Positions 27,190-49,054 of a DNA stretch of 64,000 bases are shown one piece after another. The DNA is from Proteus vulgaris. Lineage in GTDB: Bacteria > Pseudomonadota > Gammaproteobacteria > Enterobacterales > Enterobacteriaceae. The stretch covers positions 868,001 through 932,000 of the forward strand of contig NZ_CP090064.1 of the NCBI RefSeq assembly GCF_023100685.1, in the 5' to 3' direction. Numbering within the stretch: the first letter of the stretch is position 1; each line of letters begins with the position of its first letter. A program made the position numbers and the translations under genes. The notes under the pieces are model-generated. The model saw nothing but the letters and a program-made list of their open reading frames with translations, did no database searches and was not told where the DNA came from.

Positions 27190-29103
27190 ATGACGGATAA
27201 AACGGATTGTATTGCCTGTGGGGAAAAATGGATTGAAATTCATCTTGTGGATGAGCTTAATAACCCCATATTGAATATCGAATATGAATTATATCAGGCT
27301 TTTGGTCCGATGAAAAAACCAAGAAAAGGAATAGTAAAAGCGAATGGGATCATTAGGGAAGAGGAATTGGCTGGTTTCCCTATTATCTTAAAGTTAGATA
27401 CTCAAGCTTTAATAAAGGAAATGAGCACACGAAAATTAAGGCTACTTAGAGGAGAAAATAATTCCATTATTAAAGCGGAAGCAGAGGCAAAAAAATATAC
27501 TTACCGCTATACAACAATTGGTGCTTTATGCAGAGATCAAATTGATATTGATAATAAAGGGTATCAGGATGAATATCCTTTTTATCATTTTCCTAAAGAT
27601 GAAGCTTTTCAAGGGATCCCGATTTCTAAGTTTAATACCACAACAGTAATTGAAATTTGCCCATTTAGGGCTTGGTCTTTGATTCTTCATCATACTGAAC
27701 AATATTCTATGATTAATGCTTATAATTTAGGAATTTTAAGCCAACTTTCCTATAAAGATAATAATATTGGTAATGCTAACTCAATAAGTTGTTTTTTTGA
27801 ACGACAATGCTTGGATTTAAGTCGTTATCCTGTCGTCAGGGAGAAAGAAATTAATGCTCAATACCCCGCTATTGTTATCGATGTGCCTTTTGAAGAACGT
27901 TATGACAAAGTGGTTTTTTTAGATACTGAAGATAAAATAAAGCATGGTTCTAAAGCCGAAGGAAGTACCCAACTGTTTTATGTTCAAAATAAAGAACAAT
28001 TCATTGTTGCTTGGAGAGGATCTCAGGAGGGAACTGATTGGGTTGATGATTTTACCTATCGAGCGAAAGATATTAAAACCCACGCTCCAGAATTTAATCT
28101 AAATGGCAAAATGCATAAAGGTTTTTTAGACGCTTATCAATTAGGGAAAAATTTCTTTCCTAGTGATTTTGATGAAATGAAGAAAAAATCAAAAGGAAAA
28201 AGATTATTTATCTGTGGTCACAGTTTAGGGGGAGCATTAGCTTTAGCTCATGCCACTGAATTACATAAAAATACACCGTTACTTTATACTTATGGTGCTC
28301 CTAGATTATTTACGATTTCTGCGCTTGAGCAGTTACCTAAGTTTACTCATTATCGCCATATTAATAATAACGATATTGTGCCTAGGGTACCACCAGAGGC
28401 AAGTCTAGATAATTGGTTATTTAATATCTATGGGTATTTGGGCAATATCATAGGTGGTATTACATCAATTATTGATTTATTGGGACAGAAAGCTATCACT
28501 CAATATGGAGAATATTATTTACATCATGGTAATCCCATTCTTTTTTATGAAGCATATAACTTAATTGAAAATTATGAAGAAAAGGTACCTACTGCTACAA
28601 ATACATGGCGATTCAGTTATTCTAAAAATAATAGTACCAAGCTTTATATTGTTCCTGAGATAGATAAATTGGCACTGAATGACTCAATGAATCTACAACA
28701 AGAATTTATGAGTAACTTAAATGAAAATGATAAAAATAATCTTTTCCCTGAACAAAAAAATCCAGAAAGTAATGGTGGAACCAGTGTAACAGATCATTAT
28801 ATGGGAAGAGGTTATTTACCTTTCTTGCATGATCAACTTTTAGAATTAGTAGATAGTGCTAAAACACCACAACGTTTACAATCACGAGAATTATTTAAAA
28901 TTGCTTTAGATAAAAAGGTTGATATTATCAATCCTAACCCTTATAAAAAGCGAACTTTAGAAATAGATAGGCAGCGTAATTTATATTTTTTAGATTTACA
29001 ACAAAGTATGAATAATTCTCTTATTCCAATGCAATCAAATCCTAAAGAAATGGATATGCTAATGCAATTTAAGGAACAAACACATGAAATATTTAATCAA
29101 TAA
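27190..29103 (+). CDS. T6SS phospholipase effector (class 3 lipase, TseL/Tle-like)
   Basis: This is a 637-aa predicted antibacterial lipase. The catalytic Ser345 lies in the motif GHSLGG (343-348). Asp395 in NNNDIVPRVPP and His445 or His446 in YYLHHGN complete a likely triad, the order expected for class 3 lipases. Residues 1-150 form an accessory domain starting CIACGEKWIEIHLVD that may bind the spike or adaptor; 500-637 is of unknown fold. Length and gene order (hcp-vgrG-DUF4123-lipase-immunity) match V. cholerae TseL. There is no signal peptide, as expected for spike delivery. The target should be membrane phospholipids of a recipient. It overlaps the immunity gene by 20 bases. Confidence 0.88.
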   Translation: MTDKTDCIACGEKWIEIHLVDELNNPILNIEYELYQAFGPMKKPRKGIVKANGIIREEELAGFPIILKLDTQALIKEMSTRKLRLLRGENNSIIKAEAEAKKYTYRYTTIGALCRDQIDIDNKGYQDEYPFYHFPKDEAFQGIPISKFNTTTVIEICPFRAWSLILHHTEQYSMINAYNLGILSQLSYKDNNIGNANSISCFFERQCLDLSRYPVVREKEINAQYPAIVIDVPFEERYDKVVFLDTEDKIKHGSKAEGSTQLFYVQNKEQFIVAWRGSQEGTDWVDDFTYRAKDIKTHAPEFNLNGKMHKGFLDAYQLGKNFFPSDFDEMKKKSKGKRLFICGHSLGGALALAHATELHKNTPLLYTYGAPRLFTISALEQLPKFTHYRHINNNDIVPRVPPEASLDNWLFNIYGYLGNIIGGITSIIDLLGQKAITQYGEYYLHHGNPILFYEAYNLIENYEEKVPTATNTWRFSYSKNNSTKLYIVPEIDKLALNDSMNLQQEFMSNLNENDKNNLFPEQKNPESNGGTSVTDHYMGRGYLPFLHDQLLELVDSAKTPQRLQSRELFKIALDKKVDIINPNPYKKRTLEIDRQRNLYFLDLQQSMNNSLIPMQSNPKEMDMLMQFKEQTHEIFNQ

Positions 29104-29872
29104 ATATCCTATTTTTATCTTTGGCGTTGCAGTACTATTTTTAACTAGTTGTAATATATTAACACCCCAAATAGACAGGACATTCTCCCCTCCTGAAAAT
29201 GGTAGAACAGTAAAAATTACCGTCGACGTACCCGATGTTGCGGAACTTTCACCGATGAAGGTTATGTACCGTTCAAATCTTTGCCGAAAAACATATAATA
29301 ATAATGAAGTGCCTACATATACTGTTTCTGGTTTTAATAGTGAGATAGTTTTGTTAGGAAAAGAAGGTAATAGCTCATTATATAGTGCAGAAATCCCTTA
29401 TAGAGGAGGTGGGAAATGTGATTGGCAATTAAGTAATGTCACGTTAAGAATGGCATTAAAACATAATGATAATTTTTATAAAGATATTAACAAGATAGTA
29501 GGAAGTGGTGTTATTATCATTTTTGATAATAATCAACCTCAACGAATAGGAAAGAAACCTGTTAATAAAAAAGGTGATTTTGATATTATATCTGATTATT
29601 TTCCTTGGATTGATACACCTTTTAAAAATGATAAGAACATTAGCTTATGGTTATATGGCGAAGAGCTTTATCTTTATTATAAATCTCGCGATGCTCAGAA
29701 AATCACCTGGAAACCCATCATTCATAGCGATATAGTCGTTTACTCTGAATACCCAGCAGAGCGTAGAACTGAAGGCATAAGTACAATATATTCTTATCCA
29801 GATGGCACAAAAAAATCAAATAGAGATGGAAAGCCAGATTATAAAAAATTACTTTCCTTAATTAAAGAATAA
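29084..29872 (+). CDS. Lipoprotein immunity protein A1 for the lipase
   Basis: The 262-aa product has a lipoprotein signal with lipobox LTSC (Cys23). The residue after the Cys is Asn, so outer-membrane anchoring is likely. It starts inside the lipase gene (20-base overlap), the usual arrangement of effector and immunity. Periplasmic lipoproteins are the known inhibitors of Tle lipases, so I infer that A1 neutralises the lipase at 27190. It is the founder of family A, with three more copies downstream. Its first 110 mature residues are almost the same as in A2 and A3, while the rest diverges. Confidence 0.8.
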   Translation: MKYLINKYPIFIFGVAVLFLTSCNILTPQIDRTFSPPENGRTVKITVDVPDVAELSPMKVMYRSNLCRKTYNNNEVPTYTVSGFNSEIVLLGKEGNSSLYSAEIPYRGGGKCDWQLSNVTLRMALKHNDNFYKDINKIVGSGVIIIFDNNQPQRIGKKPVNKKGDFDIISDYFPWIDTPFKNDKNISLWLYGEELYLYYKSRDAQKITWKPIIHSDIVVYSEYPAERRTEGISTIYSYPDGTKKSNRDGKPDYKKLLSLIKE

Positions 29873-29896
29873 TTTTTAAAATTAAAAATAGAAAAA

Positions 29897-30166
29897 ATAT
29901 GTAGCATAATTCAAGGACGAAAAATTATATTAAAAAATGATACCAACAATACAAAAGGAACCGTATTAAGCGGTTCTTTATTAGCAAAGCAAACACATGA
30001 AATTGCCTGTTTAGGTGATGAAGTCTATTGCCCTGCTTGTCAGCAAAAAGGCAAAATAATAGAAGGGGATACTATGATGAAAATAAACAATATCCCTGTC
30101 GCGTTAGAAGGACATAAAGTGCAATGCGGTTGTTTAAAGGGTTGTGTATTAGTAGCTATTGAGTAA
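29897..30166 (+). pseudogene. PAAR gene copy P1 with start codon ATG changed to ATA
   Basis: The frame encodes the same 89 residues as the intact PAAR copies, ending in CVLVAIE, but the first two codons read ATA TGT instead of ATG CGT. No other start codon lies between the A1 stop, which is in the same frame, and this point. The next in-frame ATG is at residue 60. Initiation at ATA would be very weak, so the copy is probably silent; otherwise the frame is intact, which suggests a recent change. Confidence 0.65.
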
Positions 30167-30189
30167 TTAATCATTTTTATGGAAAGATA

Positions 30190-31116
30190 ATGGCAAGTTT
30201 ATTTAGTGGTACAAATAATCCTCATAAGATAGAAATGAATCTTTTTAAGGAAGATAATGATAATTATAACTCAAGTGTTAAGTTAAAAGACTTTGATTTT
30301 TTAAATGAATTGAATGAAGATGAATGTGAAATTGATTCTCCTAATAGAAATATTATCAAGAATATGGCTATTCCCATTTTTATTGTACTTTTTTTTAGTT
30401 TTATTTACTTATTACATGATAAATGTGAACGAATTTATTATGGAACAATAAGATTTGAAGAAAGTGTGAAAATATATGAGAAAGATTATGATAAAGAATA
30501 TTCAGTAGTTAGCAATAGTTGGAAAGAAATATATGATGCATACAAGCCATATTTTAACCAAAAAGTTACTTATTGGGATTACCTAAAAGCGTATTATTCT
30601 GGTGATTTTTATCAAGGAACAAAAAATGCCATCTATCAAGATCTTGCATTATTTTCTATGCCATTAATTGGAATGATATTAATGGGGCTGATTATTTTCT
30701 ATATGCCTTGGGTGGTATTAAAAGTAGATAGAAAACGGCAAATTCTTTATGTCTGGAATTCCAAACAGTTATTAGTAACGCGTTATTGTGATGCGGAATT
30801 TGGTTATGCGGGTACATTAATGTTCTTAAAACTTTATTGTCTTGATAAAAAAACAGGAAAATTAATAGAAGGCTATTTTAAACCCAATATTTCATACTCA
30901 ACAGGTCTTTTAGTGAGTAGAACGGCTGAAAATAAGCATTTTGTGACTTTTATTAATACGTTCATGAAAGAAGGTCGAGATGCAATTAGCCAGACTAATT
31001 ATAGTCGAAGAAAACCGCTATTTTGGTTTAATAAAAACCCACTCCCTGCTGATTTTGAACAACAAATAAGTCGTATTTTAGCCGAAATCGATAAAAAGAA
31101 AGTAAAAAATGCGTAG
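30190..31116 (+). CDS. Family B membrane protein B1 (putative immunity protein)
   Basis: I do not recognise the family with certainty. The 308-aa product has a cytosolic head (1-57), a membrane helix (58-76), a loop of about 75 residues (77-151), a second helix (152-174) and a soluble tail with LKVDRKRQILYVWN and FGYAGTLMFLKLYCLDKKTGKLIEGYF. If the N-terminus is inside, the loop is periplasmic. Comparing B1, B2 and B4, differences cluster at 77-118. Tail and layout resemble family C, and both may belong to the poorly described proteins labelled DUF6708 beside T6SS genes. GGAAAG precedes the ATG. The PAAR gene P2 starts within its stop region. Confidence 0.7.
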   Translation: MASLFSGTNNPHKIEMNLFKEDNDNYNSSVKLKDFDFLNELNEDECEIDSPNRNIIKNMAIPIFIVLFFSFIYLLHDKCERIYYGTIRFEESVKIYEKDYDKEYSVVSNSWKEIYDAYKPYFNQKVTYWDYLKAYYSGDFYQGTKNAIYQDLALFSMPLIGMILMGLIIFYMPWVVLKVDRKRQILYVWNSKQLLVTRYCDAEFGYAGTLMFLKLYCLDKKTGKLIEGYFKPNISYSTGLLVSRTAENKHFVTFINTFMKEGRDAISQTNYSRRKPLFWFNKNPLPADFEQQISRILAEIDKKKVKNA

Positions 31117-31378
31117 CACAATCCAAGGACGAAAAATCATTTTAAAAAATGATACCACCAATACTAAAGGAACCGTATTAAGCGGTTCTTTATTAGCAAA
31201 GCAAACGCATGAAATTGCCTGTTTAGGCGATGAAGTCTATTGCCCTGCTTGTCAGCAAAAAGGCAAAATTATTGAGGGGGATACCATGATGAAAATAAAC
31301 ACTATTCCCGTCGCGTTAGAGGGGTATAAAGTGCAATGCGGCTGTTTAAAGGGTTGTGTATTAGTGGCAATAGAATAA
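31109..31378 (+). CDS. Stand-alone PAAR protein P2 (T6SS spike tip)
   Basis: PAAR proteins form the cone at the tip of VgrG. This 89-aa protein shows the repeating PAAR pattern: GTVLSGSL, then ACLGDEVYCPACQQKGKIIEGDTMMKIN, then PVALEGYKVQCGC. Cys38, 45, 48, 77, 79 and 83 could bind metal. It has no extension carrying a toxin. The ATG (ATGCGTAG) contains the TAG stop of B1, and its own TAA overlaps the ATG of A2, so three genes are translationally linked. Confidence 0.85.
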   Translation: MRSTIQGRKIILKNDTTNTKGTVLSGSLLAKQTHEIACLGDEVYCPACQQKGKIIEGDTMMKINTIPVALEGYKVQCGCLKGCVLVAIE

Positions 31379-32169
31379 TGAATAAATACGTTATCGATAA
31401 GCTATTTCTTTTATCTATCGCGGTGATGGGGTTACTTTTAACTGGCTGTAATATATTAACACCCCAAATAGACAGGACATTCTCCCCTCCTGAAAATGGT
31501 AGAACAGTAAAAATTACCGTCGACGTACCCGATGTTGCGGAACTTTCACCGATGAAGGTTATGTACCGTTCAAATCTTTGCCGAAAAACATATAATAATA
31601 ATGAAGTGCCTACATATACTGTTTCTGGTTTTAATAGTGAAATGGTTTTGTTAGAAAAAGAAGGTAATAGTTCATTATATAGTGCAGTAATCCCTTATAG
31701 AGGAGGTGGGAAATGTGATTGGCAATTAAGTAACATTACTTTAAATCTAAATTTAAAAAACAATGAATATTTTTCTAATAGTATCATTGATGTAGTAGGT
31801 GCTGGAGTTATTATTATATTTGATAATAATCAGCCTCAAAGAATAGGCGAAAAACCTATTAATAAAGAAGGTGATTTTTATATTTCTTCTCATTATTTTC
31901 CTTGGGTCAATAAACAATATGAAAATGATAAAGGAAATATTTTGTGGCTATATGGAGAAAAACTATATTTTTATTATAAATCACGTGGTGCTAAAGAAAT
32001 TACTTGGAGGCCAATTATACATACTGATGTGACCGTTTATTCTGAATATCCTGCAGAGCGTAAAACAAAAGGTATCCAACGAACATTTTATTACTCTGAT
32101 AGTACAAAAGAAGTTAATAATGAGTCAAAACCAAATTATAAAAAGTTATTATCTCTAATTCAATCATGA
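31378..32169 (+). CDS. Lipoprotein immunity homologue A2
   Basis: The start is the ATG at 31378, overlapping the PAAR stop (TAATG); the longer frame from 31336 would read through the PAAR end. The 263-aa product has lipobox LTGC (Cys24) followed by Asn. Its mature N-terminus is nearly identical to A1 to about residue 125, then differs across the middle and shares YSEYPAERKTKG near the end. It is almost identical to A3. It probably protects against a lipase allele other than the one at 27190. Confidence 0.78.
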   Translation: MNKYVIDKLFLLSIAVMGLLLTGCNILTPQIDRTFSPPENGRTVKITVDVPDVAELSPMKVMYRSNLCRKTYNNNEVPTYTVSGFNSEMVLLEKEGNSSLYSAVIPYRGGGKCDWQLSNITLNLNLKNNEYFSNSIIDVVGAGVIIIFDNNQPQRIGEKPINKEGDFYISSHYFPWVNKQYENDKGNILWLYGEKLYFYYKSRGAKEITWRPIIHTDVTVYSEYPAERKTKGIQRTFYYSDSTKEVNNESKPNYKKLLSLIQS

Positions 32170-32194
32170 TTCTATAAATTAAAATGTTGAAAAC

Positions 32195-32299
32195 ATGCGT
32201 AGCACAATTCAAGGACGAAAAATCATTTTAAAAAATGATACTACCAATACTAAAGGAACCGTATTAAGCGGTTCTTTATTGATAATTAATATAGATTGA
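32195..32299 (+). pseudogene. Truncated PAAR leader (34 codons) before C1
   Basis: The first 29 codons match the intact PAAR start, then the sequence switches to LIINID and a stop. The stop lies seven bases before the ATG of C1, which has no clear ribosome binding site of its own. The remnant may therefore serve as a leader whose translation feeds C1 by reinitiation. Confidence 0.75.
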
Positions 32300-32306
32300 T
32301 ATCCCG

Positions 32307-33309: not shown

Positions 33310-33579
33310 ATGCGTAGCATAATTCAAGGACGAAAAATTATATTAAAAAATGATACCAACAATACAAAAGGAACCGTATTAAGCGGTTCTTTATTAGTGA
33401 AACAACTTTATGAAATAGCTTGCCTTGGTGATGAAGTCTATTGCCCTGCTTGTCAGCAAAAAGGCAAAATAATAGAAGGGGATACTATGATGAAAATAAA
33501 CACTATTCCCGTCGCATTAGAGGGGCATAAAGTGCAATGTGGTTGTTTAAAGGGTTGTGTATTAGTGGCAATAGAATAA
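33310..33579 (+). CDS. Stand-alone PAAR protein P3
   Basis: An 89-aa PAAR protein like P2, with a few changes (MRSIIQGRK, SLLVKQLYEIACLG). A spacer with AAAGGA about nine bases before the ATG gives it its own ribosome binding site, and the same spacer follows every family C gene. The TAA overlaps the ATG of A3 by one base. Confidence 0.83.
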   Translation: MRSIIQGRKIILKNDTNNTKGTVLSGSLLVKQLYEIACLGDEVYCPACQQKGKIIEGDTMMKINTIPVALEGHKVQCGCLKGCVLVAIE

Positions 33580-34370
33580 TGAATAAATACGTTATCGATA
33601 AGCTATTTCTTTTATCTATCGCGGTGATGGGGTTACTTTTAACTGGCTGTAATATATTAACACCCCGAATAGACAGGACATTCTCCCCTCCTGAAAATGG
33701 TAGAACAGTAAAAATTACCGTCGACGTACCCGATGTCGCTGAGCTTTCACCAATGAAGGTTATGTATCGTTCAAACCTTTGCCGAAAAACATATAATAAT
33801 AATGAAGTACCTACATATACTGTTTCTGGTTTTAATAGTGAAATGGTTTTGTTAGAAAAAGAAGGTAATAGTTCATTATATAGTGCAGTAATCCCTTATA
33901 GAGGAGGTGGGAAATGTGATTGGCAATTAAGTAACATTACTTTAAATCTAAATTTAAAAAACAATGAATATTTTTCTAATAGTATCATTGATGTAGTAGG
34001 TGCTGGAGTTATTATTATATTTGATAATAATCAGCCTCAAAGAATAGGCGAAAAACCTATTAATAAAGAAGGTGATTTTTATATTTCTTCTCATTATTTT
34101 CCTTGGGTCAATAAACAATATGAAAATGATAAAGGAAATATTTTGTGGCTATATGGAGAAAAACTATATTTTTATTATAAATCACGTGGTGCTAAAGAAA
34201 TTACTTGGAGACCAATTATATATACTGATGTGACCGTTTATTCTGAATATCCTGCAGAGCGTAAAACAAAAGGTATCCAACGAACATTTTATTACTCTGA
34301 TAGTACAAAAGAAGTTAATAATGAGTCAAAACCAAATTATAAAAAGTTATTATCTCTAATTCAATCATGA
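33579..34370 (+). CDS. Lipoprotein immunity homologue A3
   Basis: A 263-aa lipoprotein with lipobox LTGC (Cys24). I find only a few differences from A2 (for example Arg instead of Gln after ILTP, and Tyr instead of His in IIYTD), so the two are a recent duplicate or have been homogenised. The start overlaps the stop of P3. A longer frame from 33537 is not used. Role as for A2. Confidence 0.78.
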   Translation: MNKYVIDKLFLLSIAVMGLLLTGCNILTPRIDRTFSPPENGRTVKITVDVPDVAELSPMKVMYRSNLCRKTYNNNEVPTYTVSGFNSEMVLLEKEGNSSLYSAVIPYRGGGKCDWQLSNITLNLNLKNNEYFSNSIIDVVGAGVIIIFDNNQPQRIGEKPINKEGDFYISSHYFPWVNKQYENDKGNILWLYGEKLYFYYKSRGAKEITWRPIIYTDVTVYSEYPAERKTKGIQRTFYYSDSTKEVNNESKPNYKKLLSLIQS

Positions 34371-34395: not shown

Positions 34396-34665
34396 ATGCG
34401 TAGCACAATTCAAGGACGAAAAATCATTTTAAAAAATGATACTACCAATACTAAAGGAACCGTATTAAGCGGTTCTTTATTAGCAAAACAAACACATGAA
34501 ATTGCCTGTTTAGGCGATGAAGTCTATTGCCCTGCTTGTCAGCAAAAAGGCAAGATAATTGAAGGGGATTCCATGATGAAAATAAGCAATATTCCAGTCG
34601 CGTTAGAAGGGCATAAAGTGCAATGCGGCTGTTTAACGGGTTGTATATTGGTGGCTATTGAATAA
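34396..34665 (+). CDS. Stand-alone PAAR protein P4
   Basis: An 89-aa PAAR protein differing from P2 at a few sites (GDSMMKISNIP, CLTGCILVAIE). It follows A3 by 25 bases and precedes B2 by 23 bases with GGGAATAT before the next ATG. The order lipoprotein-PAAR-family B is the same as at P1-B1. Confidence 0.83.
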   Translation: MRSTIQGRKIILKNDTTNTKGTVLSGSLLAKQTHEIACLGDEVYCPACQQKGKIIEGDSMMKISNIPVALEGHKVQCGCLTGCILVAIE

Positions 34666-34688: not shown

Positions 34689-35615
34689 ATGACAAATTTA
34701 TTTAGTGGTACAAATCATCCTCATAAAATAGAAATGAATCTTTTTAAGGAAGATAATGATAATTATAATTCCAATATTAAATTAAAAGACTTTGAGTTTT
34801 TAAACGAATTGACTGAAGATAAATGTGAAATTGATTCACCTAATAGAAATCTTATCAAGAATATAGCTATTCCTATTTTTATTGTGCTTTTTTTTACTCT
34901 TATTTATTTATTACATGATAAATATGAAAAAATTTATTATGGGAAGAGGGGGTTTATTGATGATGTTATTTTGGTTGAGAATAAATATAATAAGAATAAC
35001 TTAGAATTAAGTGAAGATTGGGTAATTGTATTTAATAAATACAAGCCATATTTTAACCAAAAAATTACTTATTGGGATTACCTAAAAGCGTATTATTCTG
35101 GTGATTTTTATCAAGGAACTAAAAATGCCATCTATCAAGATATCGCATTATTTTCTATGCCATTAATTGGAATGATATTAATGGGGCTGATTATTTTCTA
35201 TATGCCTTGGGTGGTATTAAAAGTAGATAGAAAACGGCAAATTATTTATGTCTGGAATTCCAGACAGTTATTGGTGACACGTTATTGTGATGCTGAATTT
35301 GGTTATGCGGGTACATTAATGTTCTTAAAACTTTATTGTCTTGATAAAAAAACAGGAAAATTAATAGAAGGTTATTTTAAACCCAATATTTCATACTCAA
35401 CAGGTCTTTTAGTGAGTAGAACGGCTGAAAATAAGCATTTTGTGACTTTTATTAATACGTTTATGAAAGAAGGTCGAGATGCAATTAGCCAGACTAATTA
35501 TAGTCGAAGAAAACCGCTTGTTTGGTTTAATAAAAACCCACTCCCTGCTGATTTTGAGCAACAAGTAAGCTGTATTTTAGCCGAGATCGATAAAAAGAAA
35601 GTAAAAAATGCGTAG
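34689..35615 (+). CDS. Family B membrane protein B2
   Basis: A 308-aa two-helix membrane protein like B1. Head, helices and tail are nearly identical to B1, but the predicted periplasmic loop differs strongly between about residues 80 and 118 (GKRGFIDDVILVENKYNK against GTIRFEESVKIYEKDYDK) before returning to YKPYFNQK. The TAG stop lies inside ATGCGTAG, the start of a PAAR stub. Confidence 0.7.
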   Translation: MTNLFSGTNHPHKIEMNLFKEDNDNYNSNIKLKDFEFLNELTEDKCEIDSPNRNLIKNIAIPIFIVLFFTLIYLLHDKYEKIYYGKRGFIDDVILVENKYNKNNLELSEDWVIVFNKYKPYFNQKITYWDYLKAYYSGDFYQGTKNAIYQDIALFSMPLIGMILMGLIIFYMPWVVLKVDRKRQIIYVWNSRQLLVTRYCDAEFGYAGTLMFLKLYCLDKKTGKLIEGYFKPNISYSTGLLVSRTAENKHFVTFINTFMKEGRDAISQTNYSRRKPLVWFNKNPLPADFEQQVSCILAEIDKKKVKNA

Positions 35616-35628
35616 CACATTTGACTAA
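35608..35628 (+). pseudogene. Six-codon PAAR stub (MRSTFD) before D1
   Basis: ATGCGTAGCACA equals the first four PAAR codons, then the sequence switches to TTTGACTAA. The stub overlaps the B2 stop by eight bases. It marks the joint where a PAAR gene was replaced by the D module. Confidence 0.75.
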
Positions 35629-36612: not shown

Positions 36613-36691
36613 TATTAATTTAAAATCACATCATGATCTTAATAAGATATTACAGTCCAATCTTTTTTATGATGGCGTCGCATCATTAAAG

Positions 36692-38984: not shown

Positions 38985-39005
38985 ATGCGTAGCACATTTG
39001 ACTAA
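38985..39005 (+). pseudogene. Six-codon PAAR stub before D3
   Basis: Same ATGCGTAGCACATTTGACTAA remnant as before D1, here 24 bases after the E1 stop and without an overlapping B gene. It belongs to the 1018-bp repeat. Confidence 0.75.
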
Positions 39006-40693: not shown

Positions 40694-40706
40694 CACATTT
40701 GACTAA
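40686..40706 (+). pseudogene. Six-codon PAAR stub before D4
   Basis: The ATGCGTAGCACATTTGACTAA remnant, overlapping the B3 stop by eight bases. The spacer to D4 differs slightly from the other copies. Confidence 0.72.
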
Positions 40707-40738: not shown

Positions 40739-41677
40739 ATGAATAGAGCTAATAAAGCTATAAAATATGTTGAAAAAATAGTCAGTGAAACTATTCGTGA
40801 TGTGATTGGTATTAACAACCTTATTAATGAAGACTTTTATGAAATTATTAGTGAGTTAGATTCAAATAATAAAGATAGGTATATTGATTATATATCTACT
40901 ATTAACTTTAATTCATCGGGTATTGCCCTTATTTACATCATTCAAACTTATAGAAGGAAAAATGAGATTTCTTATTCTCTAGAACGTTTTCTATATCATA
41001 AAAATCTATGCTTTGTATCAGATTATTTTGATCAATTTGAAAGAGATAAGAATTTTTTTGATCTTGCAGAACAAGGTGAAATCTTATTAATTAATTTTGC
41101 CTGTAATTATTTTAAGTCCAGTGAAATTTGTTACGATAAAATAATAGAAAATATTCAATCAGGTAAAATGGCAAACTCACTTCCTATGTATACGCGCCCT
41201 CAAAAATTAGGCGTATTAGCGATTGAAATGTTAGCCAGTGAAAAAAAGGAAACTATTGATTGGGAAAGTGTGGGTATTCCGATTGATCCTTTTTATCAAC
41301 GCTTTTGCCAAGAGGCTCTCTATTGTGAAAATGATGAAATTTTAATCCCATGGTTAATAGAATTATGCGACAAGCATATTCAGTGGTCAGCATTATTTCG
41401 AAATAATGAAAATGAGCAAAGTGCAACAGGTTATGAAGTTGATATGGAAATACTCATTGCTTGGCCTTTTGAATATCAAGCCGTGAAAAATTTTCGTGCT
41501 CGTCATGGCTTAAGTACCCCTATAATCGATCATCCATTATTAAAAACACCGATGGCTATCGATCATCGTCCTGATATGGTGGGTTGGTTAGAGACTATGC
41601 CTGAAATTTATCATCAAATTACAGATGATTTAATTAAAATAAACCCAGAGCTAAAAGTCATTCATACATTATTTTAG
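40739..41677 (+). CDS. Family D protein D4 (most divergent N-terminus)
   Basis: A 312-aa member of family D. Residues 1-125 differ strongly from D1 (for example VIGINNLINEDFYEIISELDSN, and YRRKNEISYSLERFLYHKNLCF), while residues from about 135 to the end are almost the same. This pattern suggests that the N-terminal half carries specificity and that the 3' half is kept alike by gene conversion. AAGGA precedes the start. E2 follows. Confidence 0.65.
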   Translation: MNRANKAIKYVEKIVSETIRDVIGINNLINEDFYEIISELDSNNKDRYIDYISTINFNSSGIALIYIIQTYRRKNEISYSLERFLYHKNLCFVSDYFDQFERDKNFFDLAEQGEILLINFACNYFKSSEICYDKIIENIQSGKMANSLPMYTRPQKLGVLAIEMLASEKKETIDWESVGIPIDPFYQRFCQEALYCENDEILIPWLIELCDKHIQWSALFRNNENEQSATGYEVDMEILIAWPFEYQAVKNFRARHGLSTPIIDHPLLKTPMAIDHRPDMVGWLETMPEIYHQITDDLIKINPELKVIHTLF

Positions 41678-41713: not shown

Positions 41714-42418
41714 ATGATATTGACAGCAAAAAGCAAACAGATAATTAAGGACAATATTCTTCAGGAATTCTATATGGAAGCAATAGAATTCCTTGAAGAT
41801 GAGCATAAATTAGTGTTGGATTATTATAATATTAAACAAAAAGTACTATTAGAAATTTTGAAAAAAAATTATCACTATTTTGATAAACAACATCGTACAA
41901 GCCAATACTTATGTGTTTTTCAAACTGTATTAATGATTTATTTTGGTCAGTTTTATAAAAAGTCTTTTTTTTATAAAGAATTAGAAATAAACATGAACAA
42001 CGTTATCACTTATAAAAATAAAGAAAGTCAATCTTGGTTACAAGAAAAAATCAGACTTAAAAAAGATTTAATAGTAAAAGAAAATACTGATTATTTTATT
42101 GAGGATGTTAAAAACAGTTACTTTTATATCAATACCGGACAATCAACATTAGAAAAAGAGATTGATAAGTTTATTTTTAAAGATCCTCTTTGTCGATTTA
42201 AAGAACTGCAAAAGGAAAAAAAATTATTTATTAATAATGCTATTAAAAATATTCAACCTTTATCTATAAATAAAAGTGCTATTACTTATCTATGTATAGT
42301 AGCTCAATATATTGATGAATTAGGTTGTTTTCAAGATATATTACGGCCAAAGTGGTATGGAAAATTAGATTTTCCAGAACTAATTCCTTGGCAGTTTGGA
42401 ATAATCTCAGGGAATTAA
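41714..42418 (+). CDS. Family E protein E2, function unknown
   Basis: A 234-aa protein aligned without gaps to E1, with scattered changes (for example KVLLEIL, TVLMIYF, KSFFYKE). No recognisable domain, signal peptide or membrane helix. It follows D4 after 36 bases, like E1 after D2. Confidence 0.6.
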   Translation: MILTAKSKQIIKDNILQEFYMEAIEFLEDEHKLVLDYYNIKQKVLLEILKKNYHYFDKQHRTSQYLCVFQTVLMIYFGQFYKKSFFYKELEINMNNVITYKNKESQSWLQEKIRLKKDLIVKENTDYFIEDVKNSYFYINTGQSTLEKEIDKFIFKDPLCRFKELQKEKKLFINNAIKNIQPLSINKSAITYLCIVAQYIDELGCFQDILRPKWYGKLDFPELIPWQFGIISGN

Positions 42419-42442: not shown

Positions 42443-42547
42443 ATGCGTAGCACAATCCAAGGACGAAAAATCATTTTAAAAAATGATACCACCAATACTA
42501 AAGGAACCATATTAAGCGGTTCTTTATTGATAATTAATATAGATTGA
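42443..42547 (+). pseudogene. Truncated PAAR leader (34 codons) before C2
   Basis: As at 32195: intact PAAR start, then LIINID and a stop eight bases before the C2 ATG. The same joint sequence is used at all three family C genes. Confidence 0.75.
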
Positions 42548-43503: not shown

Positions 43504-43552
43504 ATTTTTTAGCTAAGTTTACTGTTAATAGTTTATAAAAGGATATATAAAC

Positions 43553-43822
43553 ATGCGTAGCACAATTCAAGGACGAAAAATCATTTTAAAAAATGATACT
43601 ACTAATACTAAAGGAACCGTGTTAAACGGTTCTTTATTAGCAAAGCAAACATATGAAATTGCCTGTTTAGGTGATGAAGTCTATTGCCCTGCTTGTCAGC
43701 AAAAAGGCAAAATAATCGAGGGGGATACTATGATGAAAATAAACAATACTCCCGTCGCGTTAGAGGGGCATAAAGTGCAATGCGGTTGTTTAAATGGCTG
43801 TGTATTAGTGGCAATAGAATAA
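43553..43822 (+). CDS. Stand-alone PAAR protein P5
   Basis: An 89-aa PAAR protein with small changes from P2 (VLNGSLL, NNTPVAL, CLNGCVL). AAAGGA precedes the start and the TAA overlaps the A4 ATG. Confidence 0.83.
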   Translation: MRSTIQGRKIILKNDTTNTKGTVLNGSLLAKQTYEIACLGDEVYCPACQQKGKIIEGDTMMKINNTPVALEGHKVQCGCLNGCVLVAIE

Positions 43823-44610
43823 TGAATAAATACGTTATCGATAAGCTATTTCTTTTATCTATCGCGGTGATGGGTTTACTTTTAACTGGATGCAATATAT
43901 TAACGCCCCAAATAGACAGGACATTCTCCCCTCCTGAAAATGGTAGAACAGTAAAAATTACCATCGATGTACCCGATGTCGCTGAGCTTTCACCAATTGA
44001 AATTATGTATCGTTCAAATCTTTGTTTGTCAACTAAGATAAATGGTAGTAGAGAAAAATACCCTACTTTAGGAGCTAATTATTATACAGATACTTTAAAA
44101 AAAGAAAATGTGGATTCTCTTTATAGTATTGAATTACCTATTAATGGTGGCGGAAAATGTGATTGGAAATTAAGTAATATCACACTAGGTTTAGATTTAA
44201 AAATCAATAACCACTTTGATGAAAATATATCTGAGAGTATAGGCTCTGGAATAATTATTATTTTTGATAATAATAAAGCACAAAGAACAATTGGAAGTGT
44301 TATTAGTAAGAATGGTGATTTTAATATATCTGAACATTATTTTCCTTGGGTTAATCATTTATATAAAGATAATAAAGGGAAAACTTTATGGTTATATGGG
44401 AAGGAACTCTATCTTTTCTATAAATCACGTGATGCTAAAGAGATTACTTGGAATCCAATTATACATACCGATGCGGTCGTTTACTCGGAATATCCTGCAG
44501 AACGTAAAACAAAAGGTATCCAACGAACATTTTACTACTCTGATGGTACACAAGAAATAACTAATGAATCTAATCCTAATTACCAAAAATTACTCTCATT
44601 AATTAAGTAA
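43822..44610 (+). CDS. Lipoprotein immunity homologue A4 (most divergent)
   Basis: A 262-aa lipoprotein with lipobox LTGC (Cys24). The first 60 residues match A2, then the middle changes completely (YRSNLCLSTKINGSREKY, DTLKKENVDSLYSIELPING) before returning to a shared GGGKCDWKLSN and a similar C-terminal part with YSEYPAERKTKG. It is probably an immunity allele of different specificity. Confidence 0.75.
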   Translation: MNKYVIDKLFLLSIAVMGLLLTGCNILTPQIDRTFSPPENGRTVKITIDVPDVAELSPIEIMYRSNLCLSTKINGSREKYPTLGANYYTDTLKKENVDSLYSIELPINGGGKCDWKLSNITLGLDLKINNHFDENISESIGSGIIIIFDNNKAQRTIGSVISKNGDFNISEHYFPWVNHLYKDNKGKTLWLYGKELYLFYKSRDAKEITWNPIIHTDAVVYSEYPAERKTKGIQRTFYYSDGTQEITNESNPNYQKLLSLIK

Positions 44611-44638
44611 TTATTTCTATTTTAAAATATAGGTTAAA

Positions 44639-44743
44639 ATGCGTAGCACAATTCAAGGACGAAAAATCATCTTAAAAAATGACACCACCAATACTAAAGG
44701 AACCGTATTAAGCGGTTCTTTATTGATAATTAATATAGATTGA
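44639..44743 (+). pseudogene. Truncated PAAR leader (34 codons) before C3
   Basis: Third copy of the PAAR start fused to LIINID, eight bases before the C3 ATG. Confidence 0.75.
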
Positions 44744-44751
44744 TATCCACG

Positions 44752-45705: not shown

Positions 45706-45754
45706 ATTTTTTAGCTAAGTTTACTGTTAATAGTTTATAAAAGGATATATAAAC

Positions 45755-46024
45755 ATGCGTAGCACAATTCAAGGACGAAAAATCATTTTAAAAAATGATA
45801 CCACCAATACTAAAGGAACCGTATTAAGCGGTTCTTTATTAGCAAAACAAACACATGAAATAGCCTGTTTAGGTGATGAAGTCTATTGCCCTGCTTGTCA
45901 GCAAAAAGGCAAAATTATTGAGGGGGATACCATGATGAAAATAAACAATATCCCTGTCGCGTTAGAGGGGCATAAAGTGCAATGCGGCTGTTTAAAGGGT
46001 TGTGTATTAGTAGCTATTGAGTAA
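45755..46024 (+). CDS. Stand-alone PAAR protein P6
   Basis: An 89-aa PAAR protein (NNIPVALEGHKVQCGCLKGC). B4 starts 23 bases later with GGAAAG before its ATG. The block P6-B4 resembles P1-B1 closely; here the PAAR start codon is intact. Confidence 0.83.
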   Translation: MRSTIQGRKIILKNDTTNTKGTVLSGSLLAKQTHEIACLGDEVYCPACQQKGKIIEGDTMMKINNIPVALEGHKVQCGCLKGCVLVAIE

Positions 46025-46047
46025 TTAATCATTTTTATGGAAAGATA

Positions 46048-46974
46048 ATGGCAAGTTTATTTAGTGGTACAAATCATCCTCATAAAATAGAAATGAATTT
46101 TTTTAAGGAAGATAATGATAACTATAACTCAAGTGTTAAGTTAAAAGACTTTGATTTTTTAAATGAGTTAGCTGAAGATAAATGTGAAATTGATTCTCCT
46201 AATAGAAATATTATCAAGAATATGGCTATTCCCATTTTTATTGTGCTTTTTTTTAGTTTTGTTTATTTATTACATGATAAATGTGAACGAATTTATTATG
46301 GAACAATAAGATTTGAAGAAAGTGTGAAAATATATGAGAAAGATTATGATAAAGAATATTCTGTAGTTAGCAATAGTTGGAAAGAAATATATGATGCATA
46401 CAAGCCATATTTTAACCAAAAAGTCACTTATTGGGATTACTTAAAAGCGTATTATTCTGGTAATTTTTATCAAGGAACAAAAAATGCAATTTATCAAGAG
46501 CTTGCATTATTTTCTATGCCATTAATTGGAATGATACTAATGGGGCTGATTATTTTTTATATGCCTTGGGTGGTATTAAAAGTAGATAGAAAACGGCAAA
46601 TTCTTTATGTCTGGAATTCCAGACAGTTATTAGTGACACGTTATTGTAATGCTGAATTTGGTTATGCAGGTACATTAATGTTCTTAAAACTTTATTGTCT
46701 TGATAAAAAAACAGGAAAATTAATAGAAGGTTATTTTAAACCCAATATTTCATACTCAACAGGTCTTTTAGTGAGTAGAACGGCTGAAAATAAGCATTTT
46801 GTGACTTTTATTAATACGTTTATGAAAGAAGGTCGAGATGCAATTAGCCAGACTAATTATAGTCGAAGAAAACCGCTTGTTTGGTTTAATAAAAACCCAC
46901 TCCCTACTGATTTTGAGCAACAAATAAGTTGTATTTTAGCCGAAATTGATAAAAAGAAAGTAAAAAATGCGTAG
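46048..46974 (+). CDS. Family B membrane protein B4
   Basis: A 308-aa two-helix membrane protein very close to B1, including its periplasmic loop (GTIRFEESVKIYEKDYDKEY). Differences are scattered in head and tail. The stop overlaps a PAAR stub. Confidence 0.7.
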   Translation: MASLFSGTNHPHKIEMNFFKEDNDNYNSSVKLKDFDFLNELAEDKCEIDSPNRNIIKNMAIPIFIVLFFSFVYLLHDKCERIYYGTIRFEESVKIYEKDYDKEYSVVSNSWKEIYDAYKPYFNQKVTYWDYLKAYYSGNFYQGTKNAIYQELALFSMPLIGMILMGLIIFYMPWVVLKVDRKRQILYVWNSRQLLVTRYCNAEFGYAGTLMFLKLYCLDKKTGKLIEGYFKPNISYSTGLLVSRTAENKHFVTFINTFMKEGRDAISQTNYSRRKPLVWFNKNPLPTDFEQQISCILAEIDKKKVKNA

Positions 46975-46987
46975 CACATTTGACTAA
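46967..46987 (+). pseudogene. Six-codon PAAR stub before D5
   Basis: ATGCGTAGCACATTTGACTAA, overlapping the B4 stop by eight bases, followed by the same spacer as before D1. Confidence 0.75.
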
Positions 46988-47020
46988 AGAAAAATAATAA
47001 ATATATAGAAGGGATTGAAA

Positions 47021-47971
47021 ATGGTTAGAGTCAATAAAGTTTTAAAATACATTGAAAAAGAAGTAGTTAATAAAACAATTAGAGATGTCTCTGATATTGA
47101 AGAGTTAATTAATGAAGAGATTATTGATAATGTTTTGAAACTGCAAAATGATAATAGTTCTCACAAGGATAAATATATAAGGTATATGACAATTTTAAAA
47201 ATTGAATCCAGTGCTATTTCTATTATATATATATATCAAATATATAAAAATACAAATAAAGTACCATGTTCTTTTGAGCGATTTTTTTATCATAAAAATA
47301 TATATTTTATTTTGGATTATTTTAATTGTTTTAATAGAAAGAGAAATTTTTTAAATCTTGCAGAACAAGGTGAAATCTTATTAATGAATTTTGCTTGTAA
47401 TTATTTTAAGTCCAGTGAAATTTGTTACGATAAAATAATAGAAAATATTCAATCAGGTAAAATGGCAAACTCACTTCCTATGTATACGCGACCTCAAAAA
47501 TTAGGCGTATTAGCGATTGAAATGTTAGCCAGTGAAAAGAAAGAAACTATTGATTGGGAAAGTGCGGGCATTCCGATTGATCCTTTTTATCAACGCTTTT
47601 GCCAAGAGGCTCTCTATTGTGAAAATGATGAAATTCTAATCCCATGGTTAATAGAATTATGCGACAAGCATATTCAGTGGTCAGCATTATTTCGAAATAA
47701 TGAAAATGAGCAAAGTGCAACAGGTTATGAAGTTGATATGGAAATACTCATTGCTTGGCCTTTTGAATATCAAGCCGTGAAAAATTTTCGTGCTCGTCAT
47801 GGCTTAAATACCCCTATAATCGATCATCCATTATTAAAAACACCGATGGCTATCGATCATCGTCCTGATATGGTGGGTTGGTTAGAGACTATGCCTGAAA
47901 TTTATCATCAAATTACAGATGATTTAATTAAAATAAACCCAGAGCTAAAAGTCATTCATACATTATTTTAA
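47021..47971 (+). CDS. Family D protein D5 (mosaic of D1 and D4 types)
   Basis: A 316-aa protein. Residues 1-130 are those of D1 except for one change (SSAISII). From about codon 130 (FKSSEICYDKII) it follows the D4 type, including WLIELCDKH and FRNNENEQSATG. The joint near 47410 shows direct recombination between family members. One private change is HGLNTP. Same inferred role as D1. Confidence 0.65.
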   Translation: MVRVNKVLKYIEKEVVNKTIRDVSDIEELINEEIIDNVLKLQNDNSSHKDKYIRYMTILKIESSAISIIYIYQIYKNTNKVPCSFERFFYHKNIYFILDYFNCFNRKRNFLNLAEQGEILLMNFACNYFKSSEICYDKIIENIQSGKMANSLPMYTRPQKLGVLAIEMLASEKKETIDWESAGIPIDPFYQRFCQEALYCENDEILIPWLIELCDKHIQWSALFRNNENEQSATGYEVDMEILIAWPFEYQAVKNFRARHGLNTPIIDHPLLKTPMAIDHRPDMVGWLETMPEIYHQITDDLIKINPELKVIHTLF

Positions 47972-48007
47972 TCTTGATTAAAATTAAACTAAGGCTTTTG
48001 TTATAAA

Positions 48008-48142
48008 ATGATACTGACGGCAAAAAGCAAACAGATAATTAAGGACAATATTCTTCAGGAATTCTATATGGAAGCAATAGAGTTCCTTGAAGATGAGCTT
48101 AAATTAGTGTTGGATTATTGTAATATAAATAAACTATATTAA
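48008..48142 (+). pseudogene. Family E stump E3 (44 codons)
   Basis: The start matches E1 and E2 for about 38 residues (MILTAKSKQIIKDN), then the frame runs into unrelated sequence and stops (NINKLY). It marks the right end of the well-ordered array. Confidence 0.75.
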
Positions 48143-48157
48143 TATTTTTATTTAAGT

Positions 48158-48658
48158 ATGTTGTTAAAGGAAAACAAAAATATAAAGGGTGTCAATGATG
48201 GATCAATATTATTAAAATTTATATCTAAACTGGATGAGCTTGAATGGAAGAAATATCAACACAGATATCCATATATATTAATAAGTAATAAACTCGAAAT
48301 AATAGATCATTCATCTTATCCTCCGTTTACAAGTTTTAGATTTAAAAATAAAAATCCAAAAATTATAGAAATGTTAACTCAAGCTATAAGTAGTTATCAA
48401 GGCGATGTCGATTGGGTTTTAATTTCAAAAAAAAGAGAATATTGTAAAGGCATAAACTACTGTATTTTAACTAAGTATGTACAAGATAAAAAAGAGAAAA
48501 TGAAAAAAATAAATAAAACAACTTACTCTGTGGATCAATATATAGCTGAGAATATGCCTCAATTTGGTCCAATCGCTTATAATGATTTAGTTAATTTAAC
48601 TAAACATATCGAGTATTTTTTTAGAAAGAATAATTTATACTTTAAAGTGAAAGGTTAA
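48158..48658 (+). CDS. Hypothetical protein at the array's right end
   Basis: A 166-aa charged, soluble protein of unknown family (DGSILLKFISKLDELEWKKY, SYQGDVDWVLISKKREYCKG). It starts at ATG 48158 just after the E3 stump and has no visible ribosome binding site. It occurs once in the window. From its place among immunity-like genes it may be one more immunity protein, but nothing in the sequence proves this. Very AT-rich like its neighbours. Confidence 0.5.
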   Translation: MLLKENKNIKGVNDGSILLKFISKLDELEWKKYQHRYPYILISNKLEIIDHSSYPPFTSFRFKNKNPKIIEMLTQAISSYQGDVDWVLISKKREYCKGINYCILTKYVQDKKEKMKKINKTTYSVDQYIAENMPQFGPIAYNDLVNLTKHIEYFFRKNNLYFKVKG

Positions 48659-48713
48659 ATTAATTAAAGGTGATAAAATAAAAAATATTATATTAAAGAT
48701 TCTTTATTGCTGA

Positions 48714-48878
48714 AGAAGAAATATAGCATTTTTTAATGGAAATGTTTTCTTTATTTTAATTGATAAAAATAAAGTGATCCAATTTAATGATGATGGATAT
48801 ATTATTCATTATGAAATACCATTAAAATTAATAGAGAAAGGAATGAGTAAATATTTAAAAAGTAAGTTTATTAAATAA
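48714..48878 (+). pseudogene. Gene remnant before the PAAR fragment
   Basis: An open stretch of about 54 codons without a plausible start (NGNVFFILIDKNKVIQFNDDG, ending KYLKSKFIK). I do not recognise it; it is probably the 3' end of another lost module. Confidence 0.35.
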
Positions 48879-48901
48879 ATAAAGATTATTTGAATATTTT
48901 T

Positions 48902-49054
48902 GATGGCGAAGTTTATTGCCCTGCTTGTCAGCAAAAAGGCAAAATTATTGAGGGGGATTCCATGATGAAAATAAACACTACCCCCGTCGCATTAGAAGGG
49001 CATAAAGTGCAATGCGGTTGTTTAAAGGGTTGTGTATTAGTGGCTATTGAGTAA
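48902..49054 (+). pseudogene. C-terminal PAAR fragment at the island's right edge
   Basis: The last 50 codons of the PAAR gene (from DGEVYCPACQQ to CVLVAIE) without its start. It lies 12 bases before the btuF stop on the other strand, so it marks the right border of the island. Confidence 0.8.

What the first reader, a model, noticed from the sequence alone, without database searches (positions are those of the whole stretch)
29084..49054. Modular immunity-like gene array of about 20 kb behind one T6SS lipase effector
Seen: after hcp-vgrG-DUF4123-lipase come five repeated families (A lipoproteins x4; B membrane x4; C membrane x3; D soluble x5; E soluble x2 plus stump), interspersed with 14 PAAR-derived pieces, all on one strand and joined at fixed junctions. 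Known: a cognate immunity gene follows a T6SS effector, and extra orphan immunity genes occur. Inference: this is an expandable library of immunity alleles (lipases for A, nucleases for D, membrane or periplasmic toxins for B and C) built by recombination, which would widen resistance to rivals. The size, the mixing of five families and the PAAR joints are beyond what I know to be described.
Basis: partly seen in the sequence, partly recalled or inferred. Interest (0 to 1): 0.92.

Follow-up and report, generated by a model that had tools for sequence, protein, structure and literature searches.

The report
Large library of T6SS immunity alleles
A Proteus bacterium keeps, behind one toxin gene of its molecular syringe, about 19 antidote-type genes whose variable parts often match the antidotes that related Proteus species carry beside their own toxins, so it looks like a stored shield against rivals; such antidote clusters are known, but this one is large and is stitched with pieces of one spike-tip gene.

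Summary
The array is real. Between erpA and btuF of a single-contig Proteus genome lie hcp-vgrG-DUF4123-lipase, then 20 kb with A x4, B x4, C x3, D x5, E x2 plus a stump, a sixth gene F, a toxin tail and 14 PAAR pieces. Of 20 genus genomes, 10 have an empty site, 8 others hold an operon, array or remnant, one gave no btuF hit. They show the native order, effector-immunity-PAAR, and the cognate effectors: lipase (A), two VasX-like proteins (B, C), a nuclease-like protein (D, with E). The own genome lacks the B and C effectors and has only fragments of the D effector. Most orphan alleles match native immunity genes of other species (A2/A3 99-100%, A4 98.7%, B1/B4 98-100%, C2 98.8%); B2 and C1/C3 do not. 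Variation sits in one core per family, and the D core co-varies with the toxin's C-terminus (5 pairs). 13 of 15 non-native A-D genes start at a fixed PAAR joint also found in another species. The allele-library reading holds; protection and expression are untested. Polyimmunity loci and Vibrio immunity arrays are published; this is a larger variant with PAAR joints and internal duplication.

The parts
22558..22902 (+). erpA, left chromosomal flank of the insertion site
   Evidence: ORF; erpA and btuF lie within 300 bp of each other in 10 of 20 genus genomes
23648..24166 (+). hcp
   Evidence: present at the same place in G009, G014, G018
24254..26392 (+). vgrG
26392..27189 (+). DUF4123 adaptor
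   Evidence: PF13503 4.6e-15
27190..29103 (+). class 3 lipase effector, the only complete effector of the locus
   Evidence: PF01764 7.6e-24; GHSLG seen in sequence; variable loop aa 314-340
29084..29872 (+). A1, native lipoprotein immunity of the lipase
   Evidence: overlaps lipase end by 20 nt; native 5' end
29901..30166 (+). PAAR 1, start codon lost
30190..31116 (+). B1 membrane immunity, orphan
   Evidence: core 100% to native B of G018
31109..31378 (+). PAAR 2
   Evidence: PF05488 6.1e-15
31378..32169 (+). A2 lipoprotein immunity, orphan
   Evidence: mature part 100% to native A of G009
32195..32299 (+). PAAR head joined to C1
32307..33260 (+). C1 membrane immunity, orphan, no native match found
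   Evidence: core 100% and 98.8% to orphans of G009 and G015
33310..33579 (+). PAAR 3
33579..34370 (+). A3 lipoprotein immunity, orphan
   Evidence: 99.2% to native A of G009
34396..34665 (+). PAAR 4
34689..35615 (+). B2 membrane immunity, orphan, no native match found
   Evidence: best core identity 54%
35608..35619 (+). 12-nt PAAR head before D1
35662..36612 (+). D1 soluble immunity, orphan
   Evidence: core 87% to native D of G014b
36613..37282 (+). C-terminal fragment of a nuclease-like effector
   Evidence: 85% over aa 81-307 of the 309-aa effector of G014
37275..38219 (+). D2 soluble immunity, still joined to its toxin tail
38256..38960 (+). E1, companion of D
   Evidence: E follows D in all 5 operons that start with the nuclease-like effector (G004, G014b, G015, G017b, G018b)
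38985..38996 (+). 12-nt PAAR head before D3
39039..39989 (+). D3, duplicate of D1 (unit 99.5% over 1035 nt)
39992..40693 (+). B3, truncated at the N-terminus (first TM-like segment missing)
40686..40697 (+). 12-nt PAAR head before D4
40739..41677 (+). D4 soluble immunity, orphan
   Evidence: core 91% to D behind a broken effector in G015, 81% to D behind an intact one in G018b
41714..42418 (+). E2
42443..42547 (+). PAAR head joined to C2
42556..43503 (+). C2 membrane immunity, orphan
   Evidence: core 98.8% to native C of G017
43553..43822 (+). PAAR 5
43822..44610 (+). A4 lipoprotein immunity, orphan
   Evidence: 98.7% to native A of G014
44639..44743 (+). PAAR head joined to C3
44752..45705 (+). 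C3 membrane immunity, orphan, no native match found
45755..46024 (+). PAAR 6
46048..46974 (+). B4 membrane immunity, orphan
   Evidence: core 98.4% to native B of G018
46967..46978 (+). 12-nt PAAR head before D5
47021..47971 (+). D5 soluble immunity, orphan
   Evidence: core 99.1% to D1, 88% to native D of G014b
48008..48142 (+). stump of E
   Evidence: first 42 codons
48158..48658 (+). F, sixth candidate immunity gene
   Evidence: its relative in G015 lies directly behind an ORF cut by the contig start, read by eye as toxin-like, no Pfam hit
48908..49054 (+). PAAR tail, the terminal PAAR of the operon
49067..49894 (-). btuF, right chromosomal flank

Best explanation
The locus is an auxiliary type VI secretion (T6SS) effector operon, hcp-vgrG-adaptor-effector-immunity-PAAR, that has been re-armed repeatedly. 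Shown by comparison: each family A-D is the gene directly behind the 3' end of a particular effector in some Proteus genome ('native': A lipase; B and C VasX-like effectors; D, with E, a nuclease-like effector), and PAAR is the last gene of such operons. Inferred: when a new effector-immunity module replaced the old effector, the old immunity gene was kept and pushed downstream. The founding joints, between PAAR and the old effector's 3' end, were made rarely, by illegitimate recombination. Since then the units have spread between species, duplicated in tandem and exchanged parts by homologous recombination, for which PAAR and the constant flanks of the immunity genes give homology. Inferred effect: the cell is protected against allelic effectors of congeners; soluble D in the cytoplasm, the loop of B and C between two TM-like segments at the inner membrane, lipoprotein A in the periplasm. 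About 11 allele types are held (A 3, B 3 with one truncated, C 2, D 3), plus F.
For: Native operons with the effector's 3' end directly before A, B, C or D and PAAR at the end. Own genome: no VasX-like or C-type effector at the E limits used (1e-20, 1e-8) and only two fragments of the nuclease-like effector. Orphan variable parts match natives of other species: A2/A3-G009 100/99.2%, A4-G014 98.7%, B1/B4-G018 100/98.4%, C2-G017 98.8%, D4-G015 91%, D1/D3/D5-G014b 87-88%. 13 of 15 non-native A-D genes start at the fixed PAAR joint of their family, each joint seen in at least one other species. The lipases of G000, G009 and G014 are 96-97% identical, but 16 of their 34 differing columns fall in aa 314-340, just before GHSLG, while their native A proteins differ by about a quarter or more. 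Distances between toxin C-termini and D cores agree (r 0.94; 2 of 120 permutations as high; 5 pairs), those of the toxin front do not (r 0.07). 16 of 18 non-native A-E copies are full length; 15 of 15 tested have no stop, against about 5 of 15 expected at 2% random substitutions. pN/pS 0.22 over 14 hand-picked orphan pairs. T6SS sheath genes present.
Against: No protection, binding or expression was measured. No Pfam, NCBIfam or PADLOC model names these proteins (one copy per family tested); the assignment rests on gene order and covariation. B2 and C1/C3 have no native match among 20 genomes, B3 only 74%. The C-type effector is seen only in broken or partial form (G017 split, G004 a 330-aa tail), and the effector before the best match of D4 (G015) is broken. 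In relatives 2 of 5 orphan A genes (G009, G015) carry a stop codon. In D, core and flank distances correlate (r 0.64, p 0.0005), which argues against free core exchange there. Selection ratios may partly reflect time spent as native genes. One genome per species, so strain-level dynamics are unseen. E shows no variable core and its role is open.
Confidence: 0.85

Rival explanations
1. The array grew mainly by tandem duplication and divergence inside this lineage; matches to other species reflect common descent of an old array rather than imported alleles.
For: D1/D3 units are 99.5% identical over 1035 nt; A2/A3 98.7%, D5-D1 97.0%; 7 of 16 A-D genes have their nearest relative in the same array (counted from the tables).
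Against: 8 of 16 are nearer to a gene of another genome and one is a tie. Ten of 20 genus genomes have an empty site. Four orphan-native pairs of A bodies from different species agree at 98.6-99.4% over 830-1000 nt, while hemL, btuF and lipase show 94.0-98.8% between the same genomes; the contrast is weak for G014, whose hemL is 98.8%.
Confidence: 0.15
2. Decaying remnants of past effector swaps with no present use.
For: B3, the third E, the toxin fragment, PAAR 1 and the PAAR tail are broken; G001 and G002 hold only remnants at the site; 2 of 5 orphan A genes in relatives have a stop.
Against: In the window 16 of 18 non-native A-E copies are full length and 15 of 15 tested lack stops; pN/pS 0.22 over 14 orphan pairs.
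Confidence: 0.08
3. The many PAAR copies are the point: a spike-tip library that varies cargo loading, with the immunity genes as passengers.
For: Window PAAR copies show pN/pS 0.10 over 15 pairs; 5 of 6 full copies are open 89-codon ORFs.
Against: PAAR copies hardly vary in protein sequence, whereas immunity cores do; 8 of 14 pieces are fragments; there is only one complete effector at the locus to load.
Confidence: 0.04
4. Assembly artefact of a repetitive region.
For: Units are 1-2.5 kb repeats; in G015 the array runs into a contig end.
Against: The own genome is a single contig; most copies differ from each other by 1-30%; G009 (one contig), G014 and G018 hold smaller arrays at the same site.
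Confidence: 0.03

Closest known systems
Immunity gene arrays by sequential effector displacement in Vibrio cholerae and relatives (Kirchberger 2017, PMC5361080; abstract, sections 10 and 13 and search passages seen)
   Same: Orphan immunity genes lie 3' of one T6SS effector-immunity module, resemble the effector-linked immunity genes of other strains, include partial effectors, and vary between relatives.
   Different: There up to seven A- and C-type genes in aux-1 of some V. metoecus genomes are reported, recombination without specific integration sites, and duplication is argued against; the word PAAR was not found in the text. Here there are 16 A-D genes plus E and F, PAAR joints of fixed type that recur in other species, and some clear internal duplication.
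Heterogeneous polyimmunity loci (Zhang 2012, PMC3482391; passages seen)
   Same: Co-directional, closely spaced, functionally equivalent immunity genes of several families; proposed as backup against toxins of non-kin; 19 immunity proteins in one locus.
   Different: Described as never interrupted by toxin cassettes and in several cases next to recombinase genes; here a toxin fragment and PAAR pieces lie between the genes, no recombinase was noticed among the ORFs read nearby, and A to D are each present as several alleles.
Orphan immunity in an environmental V. cholerae population (PMC8189183; passages seen)
   Same: One locus (CC4) holds a full module, three truncated effectors with their immunity genes and seven further orphans; in pairwise competitions orphans predicted the winner with two exceptions.
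   Different: Different families and genus; CC4 itself largely defied prediction, a warning that arrays may not be expressed.
rAID systems of gut Bacteroidales (PMC12247911; abstract and section list seen)
   Same: Arrays of orphan immunity genes; divergent orphans bind and neutralise effectors there.
   Different: Recombinase-associated by name; here the array is the 3' part of an effector operon.
pefE/pefE2 of Proteus mirabilis HI4320 (PMC5714391; passages seen)
   Same: T6SS effector operons starting with hcp-vgrG; a second immunity allele nearby with a different specificity mapped to a short region.
   Different: One extra copy, not an array; different effector.

Membership tests
T6SS orphan immunity array (sequential displacement type) | One complete effector-immunity module followed by immunity genes without effectors | tested here: met
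   lipase-A1 then 15 further A-D genes; no B or C effector and only fragments of the D effector in the own genome
T6SS orphan immunity array (sequential displacement type) | Orphans resemble effector-linked immunity genes of relatives | tested here: met
   variable-part identities 87-100% for A2-A4, B1, B4, C2, D1, D3-D5 (10 of 15 non-native A-D genes); not met for B2, C1, C3; weak for B3; D2 keeps its own toxin tail
T6SS orphan immunity array (sequential displacement type) | Copies within a genome do not cluster (no duplication) | tested here: inconclusive
   8 of 16 nearest in another genome, 7 in the same array, 1 tie; D1/D3 are a clear duplication
T6SS orphan immunity array (sequential displacement type) | Leftover effector fragments | tested here: met
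   toxin tail 36613-37282
Heterogeneous polyimmunity locus | Several unrelated immunity families, same strand, short gaps | tested here: met
   gaps -8 to 78 nt from A1 to F, then 249 nt; B and C are distant relatives of each other (24% identity)
Heterogeneous polyimmunity locus | Not interrupted by toxin cassettes | tested here: not met
   toxin fragment before D2 and PAAR pieces throughout
VasX family (cognate effector of B) | VasX N-terminal region | tested here: met
   PF20249 1.3e-16 on the 1075-aa effector of G018; the C-type effector is linked only by 23.9% identity to it
PoNe/PoNi nuclease-immunity | Match to known models, solved chains or fold | tested here: inconclusive
   no Pfam family for D and none significant for the toxin, no significant PDB sequence hit; structure job not finished. 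The PD-(D/E)xK-like motif is only read by eye
Immunity protein (function) | Neutralises the cognate effector | not testable with these tools
   needs a bench test

The most novel reading that the evidence does not exclude
The array is not only a shield but a writable archive. PAAR and the constant flanks of each immunity gene form slots into which variable cores are copied by homologous recombination, between the live operon behind the effector and the array and between species, so that a lineage can change the effector's recognition loop and its immunity core together without ever losing protection against its kin.
Probability: 0.25. Interest if true: 0.75.

Novelty: new variant of a known kind. 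Interest (0 to 1): 0.58.

Why it matters
It offers a natural series, from empty site through single operon to small and large array, within one genus and at one chromosomal site, with matching effector-linked alleles identified in congeners for 10 of the 15 orphan-type A-D genes. That makes a standing question directly testable: do orphan immunity arrays protect against present-day rivals, and how are they built. It also names short segments of toxin and antidote (lipase aa 314-340 with A, nuclease-like C-terminus with D aa 1-110) that probably set specificity.

Tried and rejected
Looked for curated families naming A-F as immunity proteins in Pfam, NCBIfam and PADLOC, one copy per family: none. 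Searched E. coli genomes with the array: no match. PAAR search over 295 family genomes at E <= 1e-15: 10 match, only two Proteus genomes at over 90% identity and one other genus at 69%; that genus holds vgrG-DUF4123-lipase-A-A-PAAR with distant A proteins. PDB profile searches with D and with the toxin gave nothing significant. Promoter-like sites equal the shuffled expectation (122 against 127.3), so no promoter claim is made; terminator-like sites exceed it (20 against 6.4), but the 6 on the + strand fall inside B and D coding sequence and the other 14 are on the - strand. An inverted repeat in the PAAR head lies just before the C joint; considered as a recombination hot spot, no test supports it. 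Considered and rejected: PAAR as foreign joints, assembly artefact, pure decay.

Limits of the tests: the core regions were chosen from the same divergence profiles that were then tested. Shifted positions that did as well: A 3 of 240, B 15 of 315, C 16 of 316, D 0 of 317, toxin 8 of 201; column permutations 0 of 2000 for A-D and 1 of 2000 for the toxin. Core-flank correlation was not significant for B (r 0.39, p 0.13) and C (r 0.23, p 0.13) but was for D. Rows dropped: G015_2069 (distant B), copies below the length limits, G017b in the toxin tests; B3 from the B Mantel test; G017b and G000b from the toxin-D pairs. In the stop-codon test A1, B3, D2, the E stump and F were left out. The orphan pairs were hand-picked, and one B pair is not of like allele. 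TM segments come from a simple hydropathy scan; the B and C cores lie largely, not wholly, between them.

Full report
What is there. Between erpA (22558-22902) and btuF (49067-49894, minus strand) lie hcp, vgrG, a DUF4123 adaptor (PF13503, 4.6e-15), a class 3 lipase (PF01764, 7.6e-24) and then 20 kb of repeated genes, all on the + strand. One B (39992) lacks its first ~69 codons and one full PAAR (29901) has lost its start codon. Two further parts were missed: the tail of a toxin gene (36613-37282; 85% identical to residues 81-307 of a 309-residue effector of genome G014) directly before D2, and a sixth gene F (48158-48658), whose relative in G015 follows an ORF that is cut by the contig start and that I read as toxin-like by eye (no Pfam hit).

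What the locus looks like in relatives. In 20 genomes of the genus, the own one included, the erpA-btuF site is empty in 10 (gap 134-284 bp by the tblastn ends), holds an operon, an array or a remnant in 9 (the own one, G001, G002, G004, G009, G014, G015, G017, G018), and one genome (G011) gave no btuF hit. The simpler filled forms show the native order. G018: hcp-vgrG-adaptor-1075-residue effector-B-PAAR-A-PAAR. G017: vgrG-broken effector-C-PAAR. G004: vgrG-adaptor-397-residue protein-nuclease-like effector-D-E-PAAR. G014: lipase-A-PAAR-B-D-stump-PAAR. G009: lipase-A-PAAR-A-PAAR-B-PAAR head-C-PAAR. Similar operons lie elsewhere in the genomes of G002, G004, G014, G017 and G018, and a remnant in the own genome; whether these share one site was not tested. 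PAAR is thus the regular last gene of an effector operon, and each of A to D has a place directly behind the 3' end of one kind of effector, which I call native: A behind the lipase; B behind a protein with the VasX N-terminal region (PF20249, 1.3e-16); C behind a second, distantly related effector (23.9% identity over the aligned part) that is seen only broken (G017) or as a 330-residue tail (G004); D, with E after it, behind the 309-residue protein that I read by eye as PD-(D/E)xK-like. Of the 20 genomes the VasX-like effector is in 2, the C-type effector in 2, and the nuclease-like effector in 6, of which 3 are without stops, 2 are broken and 1, the own genome, has two fragments only; the own genome has neither of the first two. 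A lipase over 90% identical is in G000, G009 and G014. So B, C and D in the window are orphans, D2 with a toxin tail still attached.

Allele matches. Variation is concentrated in one core per family: B residues 60-125 and C 68-150, which lie largely between two TM-like segments; D 1-110; toxin residues 115-202 of the fragment alignment. Over these cores (for A over the mature protein) the window's orphans match native immunity genes of other species: A2/A3 100/99.2% to G009, A4 98.7% to G014, B1/B4 100/98.4% to G018, C2 98.8% to G017, D4 91% to G015, D1/D3/D5 87-88% to G014b. B2 and C1/C3 have no native match in the sample and B3 only 74%. The three lipases are 96-97% identical, with 16 of 34 differing columns in residues 314-340 just before the GHSLG motif, while their native A proteins differ by about a quarter or more. 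For the nuclease-like toxin, distances between C-terminal parts and between D cores agree over 5 cognate pairs (r 0.94; 2 of 120 permutations as high), whereas the toxin's front part does not follow D (r 0.07). This is what specific toxin-antidote recognition predicts. The cores were picked from the same data, so these tests are descriptive rather than independent.

Joints. In native operons the immunity gene begins at the end of the effector gene. In the array 13 of 15 non-native A-D genes begin at one fixed PAAR point per family: A after a PAAR stop codon with which its start overlaps, and with a different signal peptide from the native one; B after a full PAAR and a short spacer; C after the first ~86 nt of PAAR; D after the first 12 nt; the exceptions are B3 and D2. 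Each of the four joints recurs in at least one other species. Four orphan-native pairs of A from different species agree at 98.6-99.4% over 830-1000 nt that begin downstream of the signal peptide, and not upstream of it, against 94.0-98.8% in hemL, btuF and lipase. I infer that each joint arose rarely, and that bodies were later exchanged by homologous recombination. Synonymous divergence is about twofold (1.8-2.3) higher in cores than in flanks, which fits homogenised flanks; but in D core and flank distances still correlate (r 0.64, p 0.0005), so free exchange is not shown there; for B and C the correlation is not significant (p 0.13 each, 8 sequences each). Duplication also occurred: the D1 and D3 units are 99.5% identical over 1035 nt. 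By the tables, 8 of 16 A-D genes are nearest to a gene of another genome, 7 to one in the same array, 1 is a tie.

Is it kept by selection. Of 18 non-native A-E copies in the window 16 are full length; 15 of 15 tested have no internal stop, where random substitution would leave about 8.5, 5.3 or 3.3 of 15 open at 1, 2 or 3% per site. Fourteen hand-picked orphan pairs have pN/pS 0.22. Against this, 2 of 5 orphan A genes in relatives carry a stop, and part of the constraint may be inherited from native life. Two sheath (VipB) genes show that T6SS clusters are present. Expression was not tested.

Comparison with the literature. Kirchberger 2017 (PMC5361080; abstract, sections 10 and 13 and search passages seen) describes the same principle in Vibrio, with up to seven A- and C-type genes in aux-1 of some V. 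metoecus genomes, no specific integration sites, and an argument against duplication. Zhang 2012 (PMC3482391; passages) defines homogeneous and heterogeneous polyimmunity loci, one with 19 immunity proteins of 13 superfamilies, and already proposes backup against non-kin toxins. PMC8189183 (passages) reports that, with two exceptions, orphan genes predicted competition outcomes in V. cholerae, while an array-rich strain largely defied prediction. PMC12247911 (abstract and section list) reports neutralisation by divergent orphans in Bacteroidales. PMC5714391 (passages) shows allele-specific immunity in P. mirabilis. Among the papers listed by my eight library searches (several lists were cut) none is recognisable by title or abstract as describing this Proteus array; that library lacks most subscription papers. 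So the kind is known; the size, the several alleles per family, the PAAR joints that recur between species and the matched effector-linked alleles in congeners make it a new variant.

Open points. What E does: it follows D in all 5 nuclease-like operons seen but shows no variable core; a second immunity protein of the kind reported for Tde5 (PMC13392607, abstract) is one possibility. Whether PAAR copies matter beyond stitching: window copies have pN/pS 0.10 over 15 pairs and their ends overlap starts and stops of B and A genes, which would suit translational coupling. Whether the fold of D and its toxin is PoNi/PoNe: the structure job did not return.

Noticed in passing
window 56869-57471 (-) and about 56504-56842 (+): A headless colicin pore-forming domain (PF01024, 2.7e-46) with a small facing membrane-protein-like ORF, possibly its immunity, sits between genes I read as relA and mazG; a terminator-like sequence of about 45 nt occurs on both sides of the insert.
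   Followed up: partly
G000:C1 about 613.9-616.2 kb (L047): A second remnant in the own genome: toxin C-terminal fragment, D, E and a PAAR with an internal stop; no vgrG found in the 32 kb fetched.
   Followed up: partly
G000:C1:3191970, 3281951 and 3208251: Two VipB genes point to two T6SS clusters, and a 40% relative of the lipase lies about 16 kb from one of them.
   Followed up: no
L112 (another genus of the family) 10456-17081: vgrG-DUF4123-lipase-A-A-PAAR with about 31-33% identical A proteins: the native operon order and a doubled A exist outside Proteus.
   Followed up: partly
L054 48-913 (G015): ORF cut by the contig start, read as toxin-like, followed by an F relative and a PAAR tail: a possible further effector-immunity kind.
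   Followed up: partly
window 31170-31188 and other PAAR heads: An inverted repeat GAACCG/CGGTTC in the PAAR head lies just before the point where the C units are joined.
   Followed up: no
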